This document shows positions 39,182 through 59,364 of a stretch of DNA of 64,000 nucleotides, one piece after another. Position numbers and translations under genes: made by a program. Source of the DNA: Conexibacter sp. S30A1. Lineage in GTDB: Bacteria > Actinomycetota > Thermoleophilia > Solirubrobacterales > Solirubrobacteraceae. The notes under the pieces were generated by a model that saw only the letters and a list, made by a program, of their open reading frames with translations, ran no database searches and was not told the origin of the DNA. The first letter of the stretch is position 1. Each line of letters starts with the position of its first letter. Where the stretch lies: NCBI RefSeq assembly GCF_023330665.1, contig NZ_CP097127.1, positions 3,100,001-3,164,000 of the forward strand, read 5' to 3'.

Positions 39182-39502
39182 GTATCTGCGCTCGGTGCTG
39201 TGCCACGAGGTACGTGTACTGCGCTACGCCGCGCCGTAGAACCGCGGCGCGGATCCCACCGCGTCCACCAGATCAACCAGCGGCCTGACCCGCACCCCGA
39301 GCCGCGACCCCTGCCAACGCAACCTCCCCTCCGACCGTGTCGAGCAAGAACTCGCAGCACTCGCCGCCGCCGGCCGCGGCCATCGCAGCCAGACCGTCAC
39401 CGGCGGCGGTCCCGCCGAACTCTGCACCGGCGCACCGACACACAGTGCCTGACCCGGACGTCCTCAATGGCAGCCGTTGCAGCTAGCCTCAGACCCTTCG
39501 GT
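39182..39502. other. Degenerate stretch between catabolic locus and mobile elements
   Basis: Low-complexity Arg/Pro/Ala-coding frames in several registers and no recognisable protein. Some of it may be a diverged right half of the DUF6431-type element whose terminus is recognisable just downstream. Confidence 0.35.
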
Positions 39503-39575
39503 CGTTAGGTCGTTCGTCATGCAATCACCAATCCCGGACGACGCCGCGATCACCATCCAACGTGTCCGTCAACAA
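39503..39575. mobile_element. Remnant right end of a DUF6431-type element
   Basis: The stretch with GGTCGTTAGGTCGTTCGTCATG and ending GTGTCCGTCAACA parallels the last 75 bp of the two complete elements at 54090-55283 and 56960-58150 (GGTCGTTCGGTCGTTCATGA through GTGTCCGTCAACA). It is diverged, with no linked DUF6431 gene recognisable. It marks an old insertion at the edge of the catabolic locus. Confidence 0.55.
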
Positions 39576-50171: not shown

Positions 50172-50238
50172 CGTTCCGCACTTCTCGGAGGGCGGATTCG
50201 AGTGATCGTCGCAACACCACCACGGTTTGGGGGTTGCG

Positions 50239-51432
50239 ATGGCTGGGACGGGAAGGCCGCGAGGGCGTCCGCCGCTGACGGCGCAGCGGGCGCAGTGGGC
50301 TGTGCTGATCGCGCAGGGGGTGAGCAACAGGGAGGCGTGCCGGCGTGTCGGGGTTGACCGCAGCTCGGGTAGGCACTGGCGTAACGGCGACACGGCGCGG
50401 GATGCCATCGGCCGTGTCCGGCACTATCCGCCGGTGAAGATCATTGAGCCAAAGGCGCGCAGCGACCGGTATTTGAGCGAGGAGGAGCGGGTGCAGATCG
50501 CCGATTTGCGTGGTGAGGGGCTGGGTGTGCGTGAGATCGCCCGCCGGATCGGGCGCTGCGCCTCGACGGTCAGCCGTGAACTGTCCCGTAATGGCGGTGA
50601 GGATGGTTCCTATCGCCCGCATGGCGCGCAACGTCTCGCCGGCGGGCGGCTTGGTCGTGCGCGGCAGCGTCGCGTCGCTACCGATACGGTGCTGCACGAC
50701 ACGGTTCTGGGGCTGCTTGGCAGGCGTTTCAGTCCGGAGCAGGTCTCCCACGAGCTGCACACGAGGTTTCCGGGTGAGCGCGCTCGGCAGTTGTGCACAG
50801 AGTCGATCTATCAGGCGATCTATGACCCGTTGGTGGATATCACGCGTCCGTGCCGTAGACGGCGGCGTAAGCGGCGCCTGCGCCCTGATCAGCGTCGTCA
50901 AAGGCCTGAGAGCATGCGGATGATCACCGAACGTCCGAGCGAGGTTGAAAGCCGTGATGTCGCCGGGCATTGGGAGGGTGATCTGATCAAGGGCGCGTAC
51001 AACCGCAGTGCGATCGGCACGCTGGTTGAGCGCAAAACGAGGTTTGTGGTGTTGTTGCACCTGGACGGCGGGCAGGGCGCCCAGGCGCTGAACACGGCGC
51101 TTGAGCACAAGCTCGCCGTGCTGCCTGAGGCGCTGCGCCGGTCGCTGACCTGGGATCAAGGAACCGAGATGGCAGGCCATGAGCAGCTCAGCGCCAGCAC
51201 CGGCACAAGCGTGTTCTTCTGTGAGGCTCACAGCCCTTGGCAGCGGGCATCCAACGAGAACATGAACGGTGTTTTGCGTGACTACTTCCCGAAGGGCAGC
51301 GACCTCTCACAGCACGGCCCGCAGGAGCTTGAGCGTGTCGCAGCAGAGATAAACGCTCGGCCACGCAGAACGCTGGGGTGGCACACCCCAGCACAGCTGT
51401 TGGACATGGAGCTTGAGCAGCTCGCCGCATAG
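50239..51432 (+). CDS. IS30-family transposase, copy 2 (divergent), 397 aa
   Basis: The same architecture as copies 1 and 3, but clearly diverged at the N-terminus (MAGTGRPRGRPPLTAQRAQWAVLIAQG) and mid-region (ITERPSEVESRDVAGHWEGDL where the others read IDQRPQEALDRSIAGHWEGDL). The DDE residues are conserved. ATG 50239 lies 48 bp inside the left end GGCGGATTCGAGTGATCG. It is arranged head-to-tail with copy 3, whose left end starts about 200 bp after this stop codon. Confidence 0.92.
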   Translation: MAGTGRPRGRPPLTAQRAQWAVLIAQGVSNREACRRVGVDRSSGRHWRNGDTARDAIGRVRHYPPVKIIEPKARSDRYLSEEERVQIADLRGEGLGVREIARRIGRCASTVSRELSRNGGEDGSYRPHGAQRLAGGRLGRARQRRVATDTVLHDTVLGLLGRRFSPEQVSHELHTRFPGERARQLCTESIYQAIYDPLVDITRPCRRRRRKRRLRPDQRRQRPESMRMITERPSEVESRDVAGHWEGDLIKGAYNRSAIGTLVERKTRFVVLLHLDGGQGAQALNTALEHKLAVLPEALRRSLTWDQGTEMAGHEQLSASTGTSVFFCEAHSPWQRASNENMNGVLRDYFPKGSDLSQHGPQELERVAAEINARPRRTLGWHTPAQLLDMELEQLAA

Positions 51433-51632: not shown

Positions 51633-53366
51633 GGCGGATTCGAGTGATCGTCGCAACACCACCACGGTTCGGGGGTTGCGATGTCAGGAGAGAGACGGTC
51701 ACCGGGAACGGCGCCGCAGGCTGAGAAGCGGGCACGATGGGCTTTGCTGATCGCGCAGGGTGTGAGCAACAGCGAGGCGTGCCGGCAGGTTGGTGTTGAT
51801 CGTAAGACCGGTGTGAGGTGGCGTTATGGGCGGACGGTCCGGTCTGCTGTCGGGCGCCCTCGCCACTATCCGCCGGTGATGATCATTGAGCCAAAGCCGC
51901 GTAGCGACCGGTATTTGAGCGAGGAGGAGCGGGTGAGGATCGCGGATCTGCGTGGCGAGGGGCTGGGTGTGCGTGAGATCGCCCGCCGGATCGGGCGCTG
52001 CGCCTCGACGGTCAGCCGGGAGCTGTCGCGTAACGGTGGTGATGATGGTTCGTATCGCCCGCACGGCGCGCAGCGTCTCGCCGGCGGGCGGCTTGGTCGT
52101 GTGCGGCAGCGTCGGGTCGCTACCGACACGGTGCTGCACGAAGCCGTAACGGGGCTGCTTGGCAGGCGTTTCAGCCCAGAGCAGGTCTCCCACGAGCTGC
52201 ACACGAGGTTTCCGGGTGAGCGCGCTCGGCAGTTGTGCACAGAGTCGGTGTATCAGGCGATCTATGACCCGTTGGTGGATATCACGCGCCCGTGCCGCAG
52301 GCGGCGGCGTAAGCGGCGCTTGCGCCCTGATCAGCGTCGTCAAAGGCCTGAGAGCATGCGGATGATCGACCAGCGCCCGCAGGAGGCGCTGGACCGCAGC
52401 ATTGCCGGGCATTGGGAGGGCGATCTGATCAAGGGTGCGTACAACCGCAGTGCGATCGGGACGCTGGTTGAGCGCAAAACCCGGTTTGTGGTGTTGCTGC
52501 ACCTGGACGGCGGGCAAGGCGCCCAGGCGCTGAACGCAGCGCTTGAGCACAAGCTCGCCGTGCTGCCGCCGGCGCTGCGCCGGTCGCTGACCTGGGATCA
52601 AGGAACCGAGATGGCAGGCCACGAGCAGGTCACTGCCAGCACCGGCACAAGCGTGTTCTTCTGCGAGGCTCACAGCCCGTGGCAGCGGGCGTCTAACGAG
52701 AACATGAACGGTGTTCTGCGGGACTACTTCCCGAAAGGCAGCGACCTCTCCCAGCACAGCCCGGATGAGCTTGAGCGTGTCGCAGCAGAGATAAACGGCC
52801 GGCCACGCAGAACGCTGGGGTGGCGCACCCCAGCGCAGCTGTTGGACATGGAGCTTGAGCAGCTCGCCGCATAGACATCGAGCGCAGCGCCTCACCCGCC
52901 CATAGCGTGTTGACGGCGTGTTCGCCAGCCGCGATCACCGCCAGCGCGGCCGCGGCGTGACATGCGCAGCATCGTGCGTGCTGGCAAACAACGTCCCCAG
53001 ATCGTCGCCGTGGGCCACGCTGCCGGTATGCCATGCCCCCGGGTGCCGGCCACGCCCGCAGCGGGGTCAGAGCCCGCGACGGCCACGGCCAGCAACATCC
53101 CGCCACACGCCTGACCGGGCATCAGCGCACCAGCGCGCGCTTACACGCTGGCGCCCGCTATGCCCACGCACGACCAACGGCCGTGCACAGCAGCAAGCGC
53201 CCGTCCGGCGGGGTCTGCAGGACACCCCGTGCCCCCGCCCGGCAGCCGCGCCCGTAGCGGGGTGAGAGCCATCGCCCCTCCGGGGCTCCCGCTCCCACCC
53301 CGCTACGGCACCCCGGTCTGTAGCGCTCCGCCACCCCAACCGGTAGGGTTGATCTGTCAACTGTTG
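51633..53366 (+). repeat. 1734-bp inverted repeat, right arm (IS30-type element copy 3)
   Basis: The reverse-complement partner of 43029-44762. Its right edge at 53366 abuts a 28-bp fragment of a group II intron 5' end. Recombination between the arms would invert the 6.9 kb between them. Confidence 0.88.
51681..52874 (+). CDS. IS30-family transposase, copy 3, 397 aa
   Basis: Nearly identical to copy 1 but on the opposite strand. Full length, with the HTH and DDE residues described for that copy. Differences include GVDRKT, VGRPRHYPP and NGGDDGSY. The intact frame and near identity to copy 1 imply recent duplication or gene conversion between the two arms. Confidence 0.93.
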   Translation: MSGERRSPGTAPQAEKRARWALLIAQGVSNSEACRQVGVDRKTGVRWRYGRTVRSAVGRPRHYPPVMIIEPKPRSDRYLSEEERVRIADLRGEGLGVREIARRIGRCASTVSRELSRNGGDDGSYRPHGAQRLAGGRLGRVRQRRVATDTVLHEAVTGLLGRRFSPEQVSHELHTRFPGERARQLCTESVYQAIYDPLVDITRPCRRRRRKRRLRPDQRRQRPESMRMIDQRPQEALDRSIAGHWEGDLIKGAYNRSAIGTLVERKTRFVVLLHLDGGQGAQALNAALEHKLAVLPPALRRSLTWDQGTEMAGHEQVTASTGTSVFFCEAHSPWQRASNENMNGVLRDYFPKGSDLSQHSPDELERVAAEINGRPRRTLGWRTPAQLLDMELEQLAA

Positions 53367-53611: not shown

Positions 53612-54089
53612 TTATGTGGTGGGGGCGAGCCTCGCGTTCTCGATGTAGTCGCTGACCGCGGATTCGAGGGTTTTCAGTGCGCGGCGAACCTCAATCGTGG
53701 CTGGCGGTTTGTCGGCGTCCAGGAGTGGGCGCAGGAGCCGGTTCTGCAGCTTGGTGTAGAACACGGCGACGCGGATCCCTTCGCTGGTGAGGACGTAGGT
53801 GTTGCTGTGGGGCAGGCGCGTGATGAGTCCGTGCAGCCGCAGGCGGCGCAGGTCGTAGCTCATCTTGGTGGTGCTGTAGTCGGGGCCGAGGAGTCCGGCG
53901 ACGAGCCCGCGAAGGCTTTTGTTGGTGAAGCCGGTGACGGCTGGTAGGAGACAGCACAGCGCGCCGGCCAGAGCCATGACGCGCGAGTCGCCGAAGCGCA
54001 CGGCTCCGGCGCGCTGGCCCTCATCTTGGTAGGGCTGGTGGATGCGCTCAAAAAGCGCAGAGCCGATGGCACAGCTCTGGCCGGCCTGT
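53612..54089 (-). pseudogene. Protein family of unknown function, 3' fragment (C-terminal ~158 residues)
   Basis: The minus-strand frame from 54084 reads AGQSCAIGSALFERI, then LRFGDSRVMALAG-like sequence (VRFGDSRVMALAGALCC), TNKSLRGLVAGLLG, KMSYDLRRLRLHGLITRLP and a C-terminal YIENARLAPTT. It ends at a stop at 53612. It is the C-terminal winged-helix-like part of the protein whose N-terminal part lies at 58151-59294. The last five bases (54085-54089, CCTGT on the plus strand) are the target duplication also present at 58151-58155. Confidence 0.8.
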
Positions 54090-54184
54090 TGTTGAGCGAC
54101 ACGCTGGGTGGTGATGGTTGGGCCCTCAAACGCCGTTGAGCGTGGTGATGTGATCGGCTGCTGATCGCGGTCAACGCCAGGATC

Positions 54185-54313
54185 GTGGTGATGACCGGCT
54201 GGGTCGCCGTGTTCGTCCGTAATTTGCGGGCGTGGACCGCTGCCCTGCCGCCAGCGGTGATGCTGCTTATCACCATGCTGGTGGCGGCGTTTGCCGGTAC
54301 GACCAGCGTCTGA
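54185..54313 (+). CDS. Possible 42-aa single-pass membrane peptide in DUF6431-type element (copy 1)
   Basis: GTG-GTG-ATG at 54185-54193 opens a frame with a hydrophobic stretch LPPAVMLLITMLVAAFAG after a basic VRNLRAW segment, giving a plausible membrane helix. An identical ORF is in copy 2 at 57055-57183. No clear ribosome binding site is seen, and high-GC chance ORFs of this size are common. Confidence 0.25.
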   Translation: MVMTGWVAVFVRNLRAWTAALPPAVMLLITMLVAAFAGTTSV

Positions 54314-54395
54314 TATTGCTTGCAACACGAGTTCCCCCGGGGGTCTCGCGCGAGGGTCGTTGAGAGCCTGGCCCAGCTGAGGAGCGTGGTGTGGT

Positions 54396-54980
54396 GTGTG
54401 CGTGATGGCGATGAGCGCAGAGCTGGTGGTGGTGGAGGCTGATCTGGTGGCTGGGCGTTTGTGCTGCCCGGTTTGTGACGGGCCGCTTGTGCCGTGGGGG
54501 TTTGCGCGCGAGCGCACCGTGCGCCTGCTTGATGAGACACGCTTGCTGCGGCCACGGCGAGCGTGCTGTCGGCGCTGCGAGCAGACGCACGTGCTGCTGC
54601 CAGCCTGGGCGCTCGCCAGGCGGCGTGACGGGACGGAGGTGATCGGCCGGGCGCTTTTGGCCAAGGCCAACGGTCAGGGGCATCGCACGATCGCAGCGGC
54701 GCTCGGGCGCCCACCAGGGACGGTGCGTGGCTGGTTGCGCACCTTCACGCGCCGCGCCGGGGCGATCACCACGACCGCCCGCCTGTGGGAGCGTGCACTT
54801 GACCCGTCAGCCGACCAACAGATCGTGTCCGGCTCACCGCTGGTGCAGGCGGTGGACGCGCTCGGTCGTGCGACCCGGGCATGCCGGCTACGGCTGAAGC
54901 TGACAGCGTCAGCGTGGGAGCTTGCTGTGGTGTTGACGGGCCTGTTGCACGGGCCGGGACGCGACCCACCAGGGTTCTGA
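54396..54980 (+). CDS. DUF6431-type protein, copy 1, 194 aa
   Basis: An N-terminal zinc-ribbon-like region has the pairs CCPVC (about residue 25) and CCRRCEQTH (about residue 55). A helix-turn-helix follows: GHRTIAAALGRPPGTVRGWLRTF (about residues 92-115), then a helical C-terminus. The pattern matches the DUF6431 family by recollection; it resembles the DNA-binding half of a transposase without catalytic residues. GTG 54396 is 11 nt after GAGGAG; ATG 54405 and 54411 are alternatives. It may be the terminus-binding subunit of this element, acting with a partner supplied elsewhere. Confidence 0.75.
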   Translation: MCVMAMSAELVVVEADLVAGRLCCPVCDGPLVPWGFARERTVRLLDETRLLRPRRACCRRCEQTHVLLPAWALARRRDGTEVIGRALLAKANGQGHRTIAAALGRPPGTVRGWLRTFTRRAGAITTTARLWERALDPSADQQIVSGSPLVQAVDALGRATRACRLRLKLTASAWELAVVLTGLLHGPGRDPPGF

Positions 54981-55277
54981 GACCCCGGGGTGTTGGTGGC
55001 CACGCGCGGTGGGTCGCATCGCTCGGACCGCACACGCCCCGCACCCCGAACAACATCCCGCGTCCTGGCGCTACGCCCCTGCCGAGCGATCAACAGCGAC
55101 AGCGAAGCGGTCACAAACGCGCAACGCACCACCACCCGCCCCCGTGCCCCCTGTTTCTCTTCCTTGCCGCCGTTCCCAGGGCCACAGGAGAACGCTGCAA
55201 GGGGCTTTGGTCGTTCGGTCGTTCATGACCCAGATCATCACCCCCGATGACGCGATCATCACCATCCTGAGTGTCCG

Positions 55278-56366
55278 TCAACACTGTGGCCTGTTCTTAC
55301 GATTCTGCTTGATCCGTTCTTCACGCGCGCGCCTGATGCCTGCGGCGCGGGCGCGGCGGATGCCGGGCCCGCGGCCGTGATGCTCATCATCGGGGGTGAC
55401 ATACCCGATCGAGGCGTGCAATCTGATCTTGTTGTACTCCTCCCTGGCGCGGGCGAGGGCGCTGTCAAGCACAGCGGGGTCGCTGATCGCTAAGAGCAGC
55501 GGCCACTCGCCTTTGACGTGGCTGAAGAAGCTCTCGATATGCGCCTGGTCTGTGGGGGTGCCGGGCCGGCCGTGATGCTGGGTGATCGCCATGATCGCCA
55601 TGAACTGGCGGGTGTCGATCGCGGTCATCTCGGTGCCGTTATCAGACCAGGCGACCAGCACCGGCAGCTCGTCAGCCTCGTCGATGACGGCCGGCGGCGG
55701 CGCGTCGACGCTGGCAAGCGGTCGTCCGTCGGGGCCGAGCAGCCCCTGGTCCTCGAGCGCTTTGGCGAACAGCAGTTGCGCCTGGGTTGAGGTTTGCTCG
55801 CTTGAGAGCAGATAACCGATCCAGTAGCGGGTAACGACATCAACGATCGCGTAAGCGATGCGCTTGCAGCGGGTGAAGTGGGTTGCGTCCCAGATCCAGA
55901 TCCGGTTTCTCTCCCACGGAATCTGAGGAAAGACGGGCTTTAGCGGCCGGGCGCGAACCGGCTCGCCCGGCAGGCTGACCTGATGTTTGAGCGCCACGCG
56001 CAACACCGTGGATGGGCTCACGAACACCTTGCCGGTGTAGCTGCCACGGTGCGCGAGCTTGCGATGGGAGCGATCAACCGGCCCCCAGGTCTCGATCAAC
56101 TCAAGGATCGCCTGCTCCTCCCAGCCCAAGATCCCATGGACCGCGCCACCACCCGGATCGCGGTCCTCCAAGCTCCCGGTCTCTCTCAGGCGCGCCCGCC
56201 AGCGATACGCACGCACATCCGCCAGATCCAGCACCCGGCACGCACGCGCGTGCGCCCACCCCTGCCCGACCGCCACATCGATCAGCCCCAACAGCTCGAG
56301 CTTGACCCCCGCGCTCACCCGCGCGGGGACCGGGCCGAAAAGCCCGAGCGCTGCCTTCCCCTGTAC
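55278..56366 (-). CDS. IS3-like transposase OrfB, about 362 aa
   Basis: The integrase core is complete: Asp in RIWIWDATHFTRCKRIAYAIVD, Asp in VAWSDNGTEMTAIDTRQF, Glu in PTDQAHIESFFSHVKGEW. N-terminal HTH-like sequence (VAVGQGWAHARACRVLDL) follows the point where a -1 shift from OrfA is expected. The last codon and stop (TGT-TGA) are supplied by the end of DUF6431-type element copy 1, so the original C-terminus may have been a few residues longer or different. An open frame continues upstream to 57581, but that is antisense to the second element and not part of this protein. Confidence 0.85.
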   Translation of the reverse strand, partial: VQGKAALGLFGPVPARVSAGVKLELLGLIDVAVGQGWAHARACRVLDLADVRAYRWRARLRETGSLEDRDPGGGAVHGILGWEEQAILELIETWGPVDRSHRKLAHRGSYTGKVFVSPSTVLRVALKHQVSLPGEPVRARPLKPVFPQIPWERNRIWIWDATHFTRCKRIAYAIVDVVTRYWIGYLLSSEQTSTQAQLLFAKALEDQGLLGPDGRPLASVDAPPPAVIDEADELPVLVAWSDNGTEMTAIDTRQFMAIMAITQHHGRPGTPTDQAHIESFFSHVKGEWPLLLAISDPAVLDSALARAREEYNKIRLHASIGYVTPDDEHHGRGPGIRRARAAGIRRAREERIKQNRKNRPQC

Positions 56367-56665
56367 AAGGAAAGCTCGATCGCCATCTCCTTGATCGCCT
56401 CCGACAAACGATCGTTCTCCGACCGGCACTCCGCAAGCTCCACAGCCTCCGCAGACAGCACCCGCCCCGGCTTCGCGGACGCGAACGCCGCCAACGACGC
56501 ATCCTTCGCCAACTGCCTGAGCCGGATGATCACGCTCACGTCGACCCCGTACTTCCGGGCCGCATCCGCCTGCGAGAGCTCCTGCGAAGTGACCTCCAAA
56601 AAGATCTCCCACTTCTCCTCCGGCGAGAGCTGCCGGCGAGCTTTGCGCTTTCCGTTCTCCATCAT
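56315..56665 (-). CDS. IS3-like transposase OrfA, 116 aa
   Basis: MMENGKRKARRQLSPEEKWEIFLEVTSQELSQADAARKYGVDVSVIIRLRQLAKDA is a typical OrfA helix-turn-helix with a following leucine-rich coiled coil (ELAECRSENDRLSEAIKEMAIEL). It overlaps OrfB by about 50 bp in a different frame, as expected for programmed -1 frameshifting. ATG 56665 follows GGAGGTCC on the minus strand. Inverted-repeat-like ends TGTGGCCTGTTC (55285) and, inverted, TGGGCCTGTTTTC (near 56723) bound the pair. Confidence 0.85.
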   Translation of the reverse strand: MMENGKRKARRQLSPEEKWEIFLEVTSQELSQADAARKYGVDVSVIIRLRQLAKDASLAAFASAKPGRVLSAEAVELAECRSENDRLSEAIKEMAIELSLYRGRQRSGFSARSPRG

Positions 56666-56744
56666 CTGGACCTCCTAAATCAAGGCCCCGCACACTACCC
56701 CGCATACGGTTAGAAAACAGGCCCACCTGTATCGCGAAGTCAGA

Positions 56745-56930
56745 CGCAAACCACACACGCGCGAGTGTCTGGTCGAGCACGGCGGGGTCGCTGATCGCTA
56801 AAAGCAGCGGCCACTCGCCTTTGACGTGGCTGAAGAAGCTCTCGATATGCGCCTGGTCTGTGGGTGTGCCGGGCCGGCCGTGATGCTGGGTGATTGCCAT
56901 GATCGCCATGAACTGGCGTGTTGGGTGAGT
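56745..56930 (-). pseudogene. Second IS3-like OrfB fragment (C-terminal part)
   Basis: The minus-strand frame reads FMAIMAITQHHGRPGTPTDQ, then AHIESFFSHVKGEWPLLLAI and LDQTLARVW, matching the OrfB at 55278-56366 but breaking off on both sides. It is a leftover of another copy of the same IS, trapped between the IS3-like element and DUF6431-type element copy 2. Confidence 0.75.
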
Positions 56931-56959
56931 CGCCGGGGGGAGTTGCACCCCCCGGCGCT

Positions 56960-58150
56960 TGTTGAGCGACACGCTGGGTGGTGATGGTTGGGCCCTCAAA
57001 CGCCGTTGAGCGTGGTGATGTGATCGGCTGCTGATCGCGGTCAACGCCAGGATCGTGGTGATGACCGGCTGGGTCGCCGTGTTCGTCCGTAATTTGCGGG
57101 CGTGGACCGCTGCCCTGCCGCCAGCGGTGATGCTGCTTATCACCATGCTGGTGGCGGCGTTTGCCGGTACGACCAGCGTCTGATATTGCTTGCAACACGA
57201 GTTCCCCCGGGGGTCTCGCGCGAGGGTCGTTGAGAGCCTGGCCCAGCTGAGGAGCGTGGTGTGGTGTGTGCGTGATGGCGATGAGCGCAGAGCAGGCGGT
57301 GGAGGCTGATCTGGTGGCTGGGCGTCTGTGCTGCCCGGTTTGTGACGGGCCGCTTGCGCCGTGGGGGTTTGCGCGCGAGCGCACCGTGCGCCTGCTTGAT
57401 GAGACACGCTTGCTGCGGCCACGGCGAGCGTGCTGTCGGAGCTGTGAGCGGACACACGTGCTGCTGCCGGCCTGGGCGCTCGCCAGGCGGCGTGACGGGA
57501 CGGGGGTGATCGGCCGGGCGCTTTTGGCCAAAGCCAACGGTCAGGGGCACCGCACGATCGCAGCGGCGCTCGGGCGCCCACCAGGGACGGTGCGTGGCTG
57601 GTTGCGGACCTTCACACGCCGCGCCGGGCCGATCACCACGACAGCCCGCCTGTGGGAGCGTGCGCTTGACCCGTCAGCCGACCAGCAGATCGTGTCCGGC
57701 CCCCCGCTGGTTGGGGCCGTTGACGCGCTCGGTCGTGCGACCCGGGCATGCCGGTCACGGCTGAAGCTGACAGCGTCAGCGTGGGAGCTTGCTGTGGTGT
57801 TGACGGGCCTGTTGCACGGGCCGGGACGCGACCCACCAGGGTTCTGAGACCCCGGGGTGTTGGTGGCCACGCGCGGTGGGTCGCATCGCTCGGACCGCAC
57901 ACGCCCCGCACCCCGAACAACATCCCGCGTCCTGGCGCTACGCCCCTGCCGAGCGATCAACAGCGACAGCGAAGCGGTCACAAACGCGCAACGCACCACC
58001 ACCCGCCCCCGTGCCCCCTGTTTCTCTTCCTTGCCGCCGTTCCCAGGGCCACAGGAGAACGCTGCAAGGGGCTTTGGTCGTTCGGTCGTTCATGACCCAG
58101 ATCATCACCCCCGATGACGCGATCATCACCATCCTGAGTGTCCGTCAACA
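56960..58150 (+). mobile_element. DUF6431-type element, copy 2, 1191 bp
   Basis: A direct repeat of copy 1 (same orientation), with the same termini and near-identical sequence; it is 3 bp shorter owing to a deletion early in the DUF6431 gene. The right end at 58150 is followed by CCTGT (58151-58155), the partner of CCTGT at 54085-54089 before copy 1. The two copies with the IS3 material between them therefore behave as one inserted block. Confidence 0.8.
57266..57847 (+). CDS. DUF6431-type protein, copy 2, 193 aa
   Basis: A paralogue of the gene at 54396, one residue shorter (AEQAVEADL for AELVVVEADL) with about ten substitutions, including CCRSCERTH for CCRRCEQTH. The zinc-ribbon cysteines and the HTH are intact in both. 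The substitutions keep the frame and the likely metal ligands, which suggests both copies were functional until recently. Confidence 0.75.
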   Translation: MCVMAMSAEQAVEADLVAGRLCCPVCDGPLAPWGFARERTVRLLDETRLLRPRRACCRSCERTHVLLPAWALARRRDGTGVIGRALLAKANGQGHRTIAAALGRPPGTVRGWLRTFTRRAGPITTTARLWERALDPSADQQIVSGPPLVGAVDALGRATRACRSRLKLTASAWELAVVLTGLLHGPGRDPPGF

Positions 58151-59294
58151 CCTGTTCGATCATAAGCAGCCGCTGGTTCACCTGCCGGGCTTTGTCGATC
58201 AGCTCTGGGAGGTTAGACAGTCGGGCCTTGACGCTGAGGTCGGCGGGCTTGTTGATCACGGTCTCGACGCGCAGCGCACGACCGCCTTTGAGGTACTGCT
58301 TGACACGGGAGTGCTTGTAGCGGAAGTCGATTCGCACGTCGGTGCCATGGGAGACGACCCGGGTGGCGAACCGGTCGGTCTTGCTGCTGGCGCGGCGGGC
58401 GAACGCGAGTGAGATCTCTTCGGGGCGGCCGATACCGATGTTGTCGGCGACCAGTGCTTCGAAGAAGCTGCGGGCGTGGCTTGGGGCGTTGAACACGAGC
58501 GTGCGCGAGACCTCTGTTTGGCGCATCGAGAGATCCCACCAGTAGCCGGCGGACCGGTCCTGGGAGGTGAGCGGCGTCGGGATGGTGGTGCTCCAGCGAT
58601 CGAAGAACGCTTGCACGTGCTCGGGTGAGAAGCTGTCGCAGATAGCCTGCAGCCGCTCGGGGTCCTCACAGGCCGCAAACCCGTTTTCAAGCTCGGTGAA
58701 GCCGAGCCCCTCGCGCAGTGCCTGGCGCTTGACCCACTCATGCCCGTTGAGCCAGACCTTCCCCGGCCACGGACAGTAGGTGCACAGCTTGATAAACCCG
58801 GCCCCGAACTCAGGGTCGAGGATGTAGAAGTAGTAGACCCCGACGCGACGGTCTTCTTTGAAGAACTCGAAGTTCGGTCTGACCCCTGGCTGCTTGCGCC
58901 GGTTGCGGCCGGAGAACACCCACTGATACTCCTGACCCTGCACGATCGCGACGACCCCGTAGCGGCCTTCCCGCTCAGCCCTCTCAAGGTGCGGGCGGAC
59001 GTGATCAAGCTTGCGATCCCCCCAGTCGCCGTGATCGCGCTTGGCGAGCTCGAGGATCGGGATCTCGTGCTCGGCCGCGTAGCGCTTGACCTCGGCACGA
59101 AACCGGTTCCCGATCGGCGACAGCAGCGCCGCCGAGGCGATCGGCTTGCCGAGATGACCGCACAGGAACCGCACCACCTGCCCACCAACCTGCAGGTTCG
59201 GCAGATAAGCGTTCAGATAAAGCCTGTCCACACACTCGATCTCGAGTGCCACGTGCCCGTCGAGCACGTCGTTGATATTCGCCACGCCAGCCAT
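58151..59294 (-). pseudogene. Protein family of unknown function, 5' fragment (N-terminal ~381 residues)
   Basis: Start ATG 59294 (MAGVANINDVLDGHVALEIE). Recognisable family segments: CVDRLYLNAYLPNLQVGGQV, FYILDPEFGAGFIKLCTYCP, KVWLNGHEWVKRQA, DRSAGYWWDLSMRQTEVSRT, and KHSRVKQYLKGGRALRVETVIN. The frame breaks after RLLMIEQ at the element end. Joined to the fragment at 53612-54084 it reads MIEQAGQSCAIG without a gap, giving an intact protein of about 540 residues. I recall related proteins annotated only as hypothetical in actinobacteria; I cannot assign a function. Downstream residues read into the element and are not original. Confidence 0.82.
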
Positions 59295-59364
59295 CCACAC
59301 AGCATGAACACAAAGGGCGGGCCTTGCCCACCCGACAACGTCACAGCCCTCCACGGGGGGAGGC

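What the first reader, a model, noticed from the sequence alone, without database searches (positions are those of the whole stretch)
54085..58155. A mobile element that encodes only a DUF6431-type protein, moving as a pair
Two 1.19-kb copies have matched imperfect inverted ends (TGTTGA-GC/CG-GACAC) and one DUF6431-type gene each, with zinc-ribbon and HTH but no recombinase. CCTGT lies outside copy 1 on the left and outside copy 2 on the right, so the whole block from 54090 to 58150 inserted, or expanded, at a single target with a 5-bp duplication. A third, decayed right end lies at 39503-39575. Either the element depends on a transposase in trans or DUF6431 is part of an unrecognised transposition mechanism.
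Basis: partly seen in the sequence, partly recalled or inferred. Interest (0 to 1): 0.7.

Follow-up and report, generated by a model that had tools for sequence, protein, structure and literature searches.

The report
Transposase-less mobile element keeping one gene
A short jumping-DNA element in this bacterium has no transposase of its own but keeps one conserved DNA-binding gene, and it probably rides on the enzymes of larger relatives that still carry the full set.

Summary
The window holds two complete 1.19-kb copies (54090-55283, 56960-58150). The genome holds five more complete copies and one split copy; all eight have an open DUF6431 gene. Four of five solo copies have exact 5-6-bp target duplications. 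The 54090-58150 block sits between CCTGT repeats inside one host gene that is uninterrupted in relatives.

Larger transposons with the same kind of ends encode DUF6431, an rve/Mu_C transposase and an AAA ATPase: eight near-identical 4.56-kb copies in this genome, and a 4.52-kb one in a congener whose first 28 bp equal the window element's. So the short element is a non-autonomous relative, most likely moved in trans.

It is probably not a fresh deletion. DUF6431-only elements occur in 5 of 28 genus genomes and in Streptomyces and Pseudofrankia. Their ends match full elements of related hosts, but their DUF6431 has diverged and stays under purifying selection. DUF6431 looks like a DNA-binding accessory. 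Open: one complete chromosome has two identical copies and no detected helper. New variant of a known kind.

The parts
54085..54089 (.). CCTGT, left half of the 5-bp target duplication
54090..55283 (+). Copy 1 of the DUF6431-only element, 1194 bp
54090..54117 (+). Left end, 28 of 28 bp identical to full element L109 (congener G013)
54396..54980 (+). DUF6431-type gene of copy 1, 194 aa, zinc ribbon + HTH
54424..54889 (+). Stretch holding every difference between copies 1 and 2 (27 substitutions, 3-bp gap); conversion-like mosaic
55205..55283 (+). Right end region; 80% to full element L109's right end
55284..56959 (.). DNA between the copies: an IS3-type element (orfA 56315-56665; orfB up to about 56324, both minus strand), its left part cut off by copy 1, then a second IS3 fragment at about 56758-56921
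56960..58150 (+). Copy 2 of the DUF6431-only element, 1191 bp
57266..57847 (+). DUF6431-type gene of copy 2, 193 aa
58151..58155 (.). CCTGT, right half of the 5-bp target duplication
58156..59354 (-). 5' part of the host gene interrupted by the block
53612..54084 (-). 3' part of the same interrupted host gene
39261..39574 (+). Relic of a full element: end of its fourth gene (39261-39433) and its right end (39493-39574)

Best explanation
The 1.19-kb sequence is a non-autonomous transposable element of an actinobacterial DUF6431-TniA-TniB-type transposon family. Full members encode DUF6431, a DDE transposase of the rve/Mu_C (TnsB/TniA) type and an AAA ATPase of the TnsC/TniB type, between TGTTG...CAACA ends, and make duplications of 5-7 bp (5-8 bp in the short elements). 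The short elements lack transposase and ATPase genes but keep both ends and a DUF6431 gene of their own. Shown: ends, copies, duplications, single-site insertion, full relatives with matching ends, purifying selection on DUF6431 between transposase-less elements. Inferred: transposase and ATPase of full elements mobilise it in trans, while its own DUF6431 acts in cis as a DNA-binding accessory, at its ends or in target choice, which is why the gene is kept. Also inferred: the paired block arose by replicative transposition (a cointegrate-like target-copy-donor-copy-target structure) or as a composite; the identical outer parts of the two copies fit a common recent origin, and the differences in the gene would then be later conversion from another copy.
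For: Full elements in the same genome: eight 4561- or 4567-bp copies, 99.8-100% identical, with rve, Mu-transpos_C and AAA_22 domains; 6 of these 8 have exact 5-7-bp duplications. Full element L109 (4517 bp) has the same first 28 bp and the same domains, with a TniB match below cut-off. Short-element ends resemble those of full elements from related hosts: window element to L109 62/72, the two Streptomyces elements to Sphaerisporangium 58/72, against medians of 39-41. Selection: omega 0.17-0.36 for 6 of 7 transposase-less pairs (0.54 for the seventh) against 0.26-0.31 for three full-element pairs. Window and G015 elements align over their whole length, so their ancestor was probably already short. 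The protein model (pLDDT 90.9) is zinc-ribbon-like strands, HTH and helices.
Against: No transposition was measured. Only 2 of 5 genus genomes with DUF6431-only elements hold a family transposase. G015 (Conexibacter sp. DBS9H8 chromosome, one contig) has two identical copies with 5- and 8-bp duplications and no family transposase; its one weak hit (E 4e-4) looks IS3-type by eye. S. triticirhizae and S. cavernae have no hit at E 0.001. In the own genome all strong transposase hits are of the other end type; an L109-type helper was seen only as a relic. The matching full element L109 itself shows no exact duplication, nor does L111. DUF6431 of the short elements is not close to that of the matching full element, which weakens simple interchange. 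The Pseudofrankia element's ends match no full element well (39/72).
Confidence: 0.72

Rival explanations
1. Ordinary internal-deletion derivatives: each short element is a full element that lost its transposase and ATPase genes, and DUF6431 is only a passenger left over.
For: Same order of parts and a shared right-end block. In the pruned wide tree the data do not reject grouping by end type (AU p 0.353 and 0.231). Short elements with different end types are no closer to each other in DUF6431 (32-50%) than to full elements.
Against: Genus-level tree puts all 15 short-element rows on one side of a 98/97 branch from 12 full-element rows, though 8 of the 15 are copies of the window's own element. 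With matching ends, DUF6431 identity is 42-50% (4 pairs) against 50-91% between full elements with equally similar ends (12 pairs). Omega well below 1 between short elements of different species.
Confidence: 0.15
2. The short element is a satellite whose DUF6431 represses or redirects the full element's transposase, as a regulator rather than a cis-acting helper.
For: DUF6431 has a repressor-like make-up (zinc ribbon, HTH, helices) and has diverged from the full elements' copy while the ends stayed matched.
Against: No data on regulation; full elements keep their own DUF6431, so a helper role is equally open.
Confidence: 0.08
3. DUF6431 alone moves the element, by unknown catalysis or by recruiting an unrelated nuclease or transposase.
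For: Two identical copies with duplications in a one-contig chromosome without a family transposase; two Streptomyces hosts without one.
Against: No recombinase domain, no match to a solved recombinase fold; the invariant residues are shared with full elements that have their own DDE enzyme; a lost or plasmid-borne helper explains the same data.
Confidence: 0.05

Closest known systems
Tn5053/Tn402-type transposons (TniA, TniB, TniQ, TniR)
   Same: Full members: DDE transposase with rve and Mu_C domains followed by an AAA ATPase; TG...CA ends; short target duplications. Tn5053's gene set and resolvase: passages of PMC9527255 seen.
   Different: DUF6431 first instead of TniQ; no TniQ or resolvase match in the four genes; duplications vary in length; the window element has neither TniA nor TniB.
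IS21 (IstA-IstB)
   Same: DDE transposase plus AAA ATPase (passages of PMC11208146 seen); variable short duplications (recalled for IS21).
   Different: ATPase matches AAA_22, no IstB match; IS21 model scores 44 bits against a cut-off of 160 for the full element's transposase; a further gene, DUF6431.
IS481
   Same: Nearest NCBIfam model for the full element's transposase.
   Different: 150 bits against a cut-off of 224; ATPase and DUF6431 partners.
Mobile insertion cassettes (MICs) and MITEs
   Same: No transposase; rely on an active transposase for mobility (PMC6542083, passages seen); MICs carry a non-transposase gene (recalled).
   Different: The retained gene is the element family's own accessory, under purifying selection, in several diverged short elements.
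TnpB-only IS200/IS605 elements (recalled)
   Same: Transposase-less elements that keep the accessory gene of the family.
   Different: DUF6431 is a DNA-binding protein by sequence and model, not an RNA-guided nuclease.

Membership tests
DUF6431-TniA-TniB-type transposon, non-autonomous member | TGTTG-type inverted ends matching full members | tested here: met
   28/28 bp at the left, 62/72 over both ends to L109
DUF6431-TniA-TniB-type transposon, non-autonomous member | DUF6431 gene near the left end | tested here: met
   16 of 18 own-genome matches over the cut-off, copy 1 included, copy 2 just under; both just under when scanned as proteins
DUF6431-TniA-TniB-type transposon, non-autonomous member | Short target duplication as in full members | tested here: met
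   own solo short copies 4 of 5 exact; own full copies 6 of 8; full L109 and L111 none
DUF6431-TniA-TniB-type transposon, non-autonomous member | Moves when full-element proteins are supplied | not testable with these tools
   Needs a transposition assay
Tn5053/Tn402 | TniA and TniB encoded | tested here: not met
   Absent from the window element; related proteins in full elements
Tn5053/Tn402 | TniQ and resolvase TniR encoded | tested here: not met
   No such Pfam match in the four genes of the full element or in the window's DUF6431
IS21 | IstB-type ATPase | tested here: not met
   AAA_22; no IstB match
IS481 | Transposase over the NCBIfam IS481 cut-off | tested here: not met
   150 bits, cut-off 224 (full element's transposase; the window element has none)
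Mobile insertion cassette / MITE | No transposase gene, IS-type ends, several copies with duplications | tested here: met
Mobile insertion cassette / MITE | Mobilised in trans by a related transposase | not testable with these tools
   Inferred from matching ends only

The most novel reading that the evidence does not exclude
DUF6431-only elements are a self-standing class: an old transposase-less lineage across Actinomycetota in which a small zinc-ribbon/HTH protein is the only element-encoded factor and is sufficient for mobility, by recruiting whatever DDE enzyme or nuclease the host offers. The two identical, duplication-flanked copies in the Conexibacter sp. DBS9H8 chromosome without a family transposase would be its signature.
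Probability: 0.06. Interest if true: 0.9.

Novelty: new variant of a known kind. Interest (0 to 1): 0.55.

Why it matters
Non-autonomous elements usually keep only their ends; a gene inside tends to decay or to be cargo. Here transposase-less elements keep one accessory gene of their own family under selection, in several species and with different end types. That points to a cis-acting job for DUF6431, a domain of unknown function in Pfam, and offers a simple way to test what it does in TniA/TniB-type transposition: ends, helper and DUF6431 come naturally separated. My one search for the word DUF6431 in the paper library returned a single paper, on another subject (listing only).

Tried and rejected
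Larger IS with the transposase deleted only in these copies: judged too simple; full relatives exist, but their DUF6431 is not close. DUF6431 as hidden recombinase: no recombinase domain, no PDB sequence match, no Foldseek match at E <= 0.001 (weak hits only, many TetR-type). TnRErm46 of Rhodococcus equi (PMC6794481, passages seen) looked similar by keywords (IS481 transposase, an AAA ATPase motif, TGTTG ends) but is a different element with a CTAG target. The weak G015 transposase hit looks IS3-type by eye (no family search). The DNA between the copies was searched to see whether copy 1 had its own duplication; copy 1's right flank is an internal part of IS3. The plasmid search (55 records) led to two Streptomyces plasmids in which the DUF6431 match, annotated as helix-turn-helix, precedes a DDE transposase, a small ORF and an AAA ATPase. 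Paper searches: I saw no description of this family in their listings.

Limits. Genus tree: 7 pieces or duplicate rows were left out before it. Wide tree (81 rows): 16 of 22 transposase-less rows share one branch (95/98), the other 6 are scattered. For one search I dropped 16 rows, 10 of them transposase-less and among these the 6 scattered ones; the 12 left are one side of a branch with only 55/87, so that result is partly made by the choice of rows. The end scan covered 19 of 23 transposase-less loci with room (four near-identical Mycobacterium loci left out) and gave no convincing ends for most of them. Ends of L103, L162, L166 and L177 were picked partly by their duplication, so those duplications are not independent; L162's two ends match only 10 of 20. 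Of the short elements from other genomes, 8 of 10 have exact duplications of 5-8 bp; L100 and L117 have none. The 21 full elements and 24 are those whose ends looked plausible by eye, mostly.
Full report
Checking the observation. The window (bases 3100001-3164000 of a 3.46-Mb single-contig genome) contains two direct copies of a 1.19-kb element at 54090-55283 and 56960-58150. Their outer 306 bp are identical at both sides; all 27 substitutions and a 3-bp gap lie at 54424-54889, inside the single gene. Five more complete copies at 93-94% identity, one copy split by an insertion, and several end fragments lie elsewhere in the genome. The gene is open in all eight copies. It matches Pfam DUF6431 (E about 2e-5, slightly under the cut-off) and HTH_23 (over the cut-off), and nothing recombinase-like.

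Target duplications. Four of the five complete solo copies have exact duplications of 5 or 6 bp (GCTGGC, CAAGGG, GCTGA, GGGAT); the fifth, L006, has none. In the window neither copy has its own duplication of 5 bp or more, but the outer pair does: CCTGT at 54085-54089 and 58151-58155. Joining the flanks with one CCTGT gives a 570-codon open frame on the minus strand. Of 61 genomes searched, two congeners (G021 76%, G023 73%) hold the uninterrupted gene across the junction, and a third at 43% (G022). The whole 4.06-kb block is therefore one net insertion. The DNA between the copies is an IS3-type element whose left part is cut off by copy 1, followed by a second IS3 fragment.

Full relatives. 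A block of the short element's right part also occurs, at 75%, in a 4.56-kb element present eight times, 99.8-100% identical, in the same genome. It encodes DUF6431 (210 aa), a 455-aa protein with rve and Mu-transpos_C domains, a 271-aa AAA_22 ATPase, and a 423-aa protein without Pfam match at E 0.1 that resembles phage DNA primases in PHROGs. Six of its eight copies have exact 5-7-bp duplications. In congener G013, L109 (4517 bp) encodes the same set; its first 28 bp are identical to the window element's and its right end is 80% identical over 80 bp; it shows no exact duplication.

How widespread. Within the genus, DUF6431 genes were found in 10 of 28 genomes. DUF6431-only elements of about 1.0-1.2 kb, some decayed or cut by contig ends, occur in 5 of 28 (G000, G008, G015, G020, G024). 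The family's transposase was found in 8 of 28, one of them (G009) a distant 29% match. A scan of genome contigs found 148 relatives and kept 80; 52 of the 80 have a transposase match just downstream, 28 do not, 5 of these for lack of room. Among the rest, Streptomyces triticirhizae (1077 bp), S. cavernae (3113 bp, with an ankyrin-repeat gene inside) and, with weaker ends, Pseudofrankia (1081 bp) have elements with duplications of 6, 8 and 8 bp.

Probably not a recent deletion. In the genus-level tree 15 short-element DUF6431 rows (8 of them copies of the window's element) lie on one side of a 98/97 branch, 12 full-element rows on the other. The wider trees are less firm: 16 of 22 in one branch at 95/98; 12 of 12 at only 55/87 after I dropped 16 rows, the six scattered ones included, and grouping by end type is not rejected (p 0.353, 0.231). 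The clearest measure pairs ends with protein: among full elements, the 12 pairs with 54 or more of 72 end bases in common share 50-91% of DUF6431; the four short-to-full pairs that alike share only 42-50%. Against a single old lineage, short elements with different end types share only 32-50% of DUF6431. Ends of 9 of 10 short elements follow those of full elements from related hosts. DUF6431 is under purifying selection between transposase-less elements: window to G015 dS 0.71, dN 0.12, omega 0.17; other pairs 0.20-0.36, one at 0.54; three full-element pairs 0.26-0.31. Among the eight own copies omega is 0.16-0.52.

What DUF6431 is. AlphaFold2 with 61 sequences gives mean pLDDT 90.9: a beta-rich N-terminal part with a CxxC...CxxC pattern, a helix-turn-helix, and C-terminal helices. 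No solved structure matches at E 0.001 and none by sequence. I see no RNase H-like fold in its order of strands and helices. In full elements it is encoded first, before transposase and ATPase. I infer a DNA-binding accessory, for end recognition or target choice.

Mechanism (inferred). Most likely the transposase and ATPase of a full element act on the short element's ends in trans, with the element's own DUF6431 acting in cis. The direct repeat of two copies around foreign DNA, with a duplication only at the outside, is what a cointegrate or a composite leaves. Related transposons without TnsA make cointegrates (passages of PMC9527255), and the full element shows no TnsA or resolvase match. 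The identical outer parts of the two copies fit a recent common origin; the differing gene centre then needs gene conversion from another copy, which mosaic differences among the other copies make plausible.

Against this. G015 holds two identical copies with duplications of 5 and 8 bp and no family transposase; its only weak hit looks IS3-type. G008 and G020 (90% and 69% complete) and two Streptomyces hosts show none; Pseudofrankia has weak hits only and the Frankia MAG a fragment. A lost or plasmid-borne helper is the simplest answer, but independent mobility is not excluded. In the window's genome the strong transposase hits are of the other end type, and the L109 type was seen only as a relic.

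Verdict. Real, and probably more than a deletion product: transposase-less elements that keep one accessory gene under selection. New variant of a known kind (non-autonomous transposons / mobile insertion cassettes), interest 0.55.

Noticed in passing
G000:C1, eight places incl. L021 2248-6808; G024:C83 (L111): The 4.56-kb full element is present eight times at 99.8-100% identity, and a congener (G024) holds a copy whose four proteins are 100% identical: a recent burst and a recent transfer between species.
   Followed up: partly
L023 2374-6940; L028 2860-7420: Two full-element copies lack exact duplications: one sits inside the DUF6431 gene of a related full element, the other close to a second right-end-like stretch.
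   Followed up: no
window 54424-54889: The two window copies are identical for 306 bp at each side but differ by 27 substitutions and 3 bp within the gene; other copies look mosaic too.
   Followed up: partly
L177 5648-8760 (Streptomyces cavernae): A DUF6431-only element with an 8-bp duplication carries a 485-aa ankyrin-repeat gene as cargo.
   Followed up: partly
L170-L175: Six Mycobacterium genomes share a DUF6431 gene with no transposase match downstream in the DNA held; a transposase/ATPase pair lies about 4 kb upstream on the other strand.
   Followed up: no
window 50227-51432 and 51681-52874: Two similar transposase-like ORFs in tandem, IS30-like by eye (no family search run).
   Followed up: no
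L021 5236-6504: Fourth gene of the full element, 423 aa, primase-like in PHROGs (E 2e-10); matched in only part of the full elements.
   Followed up: partly
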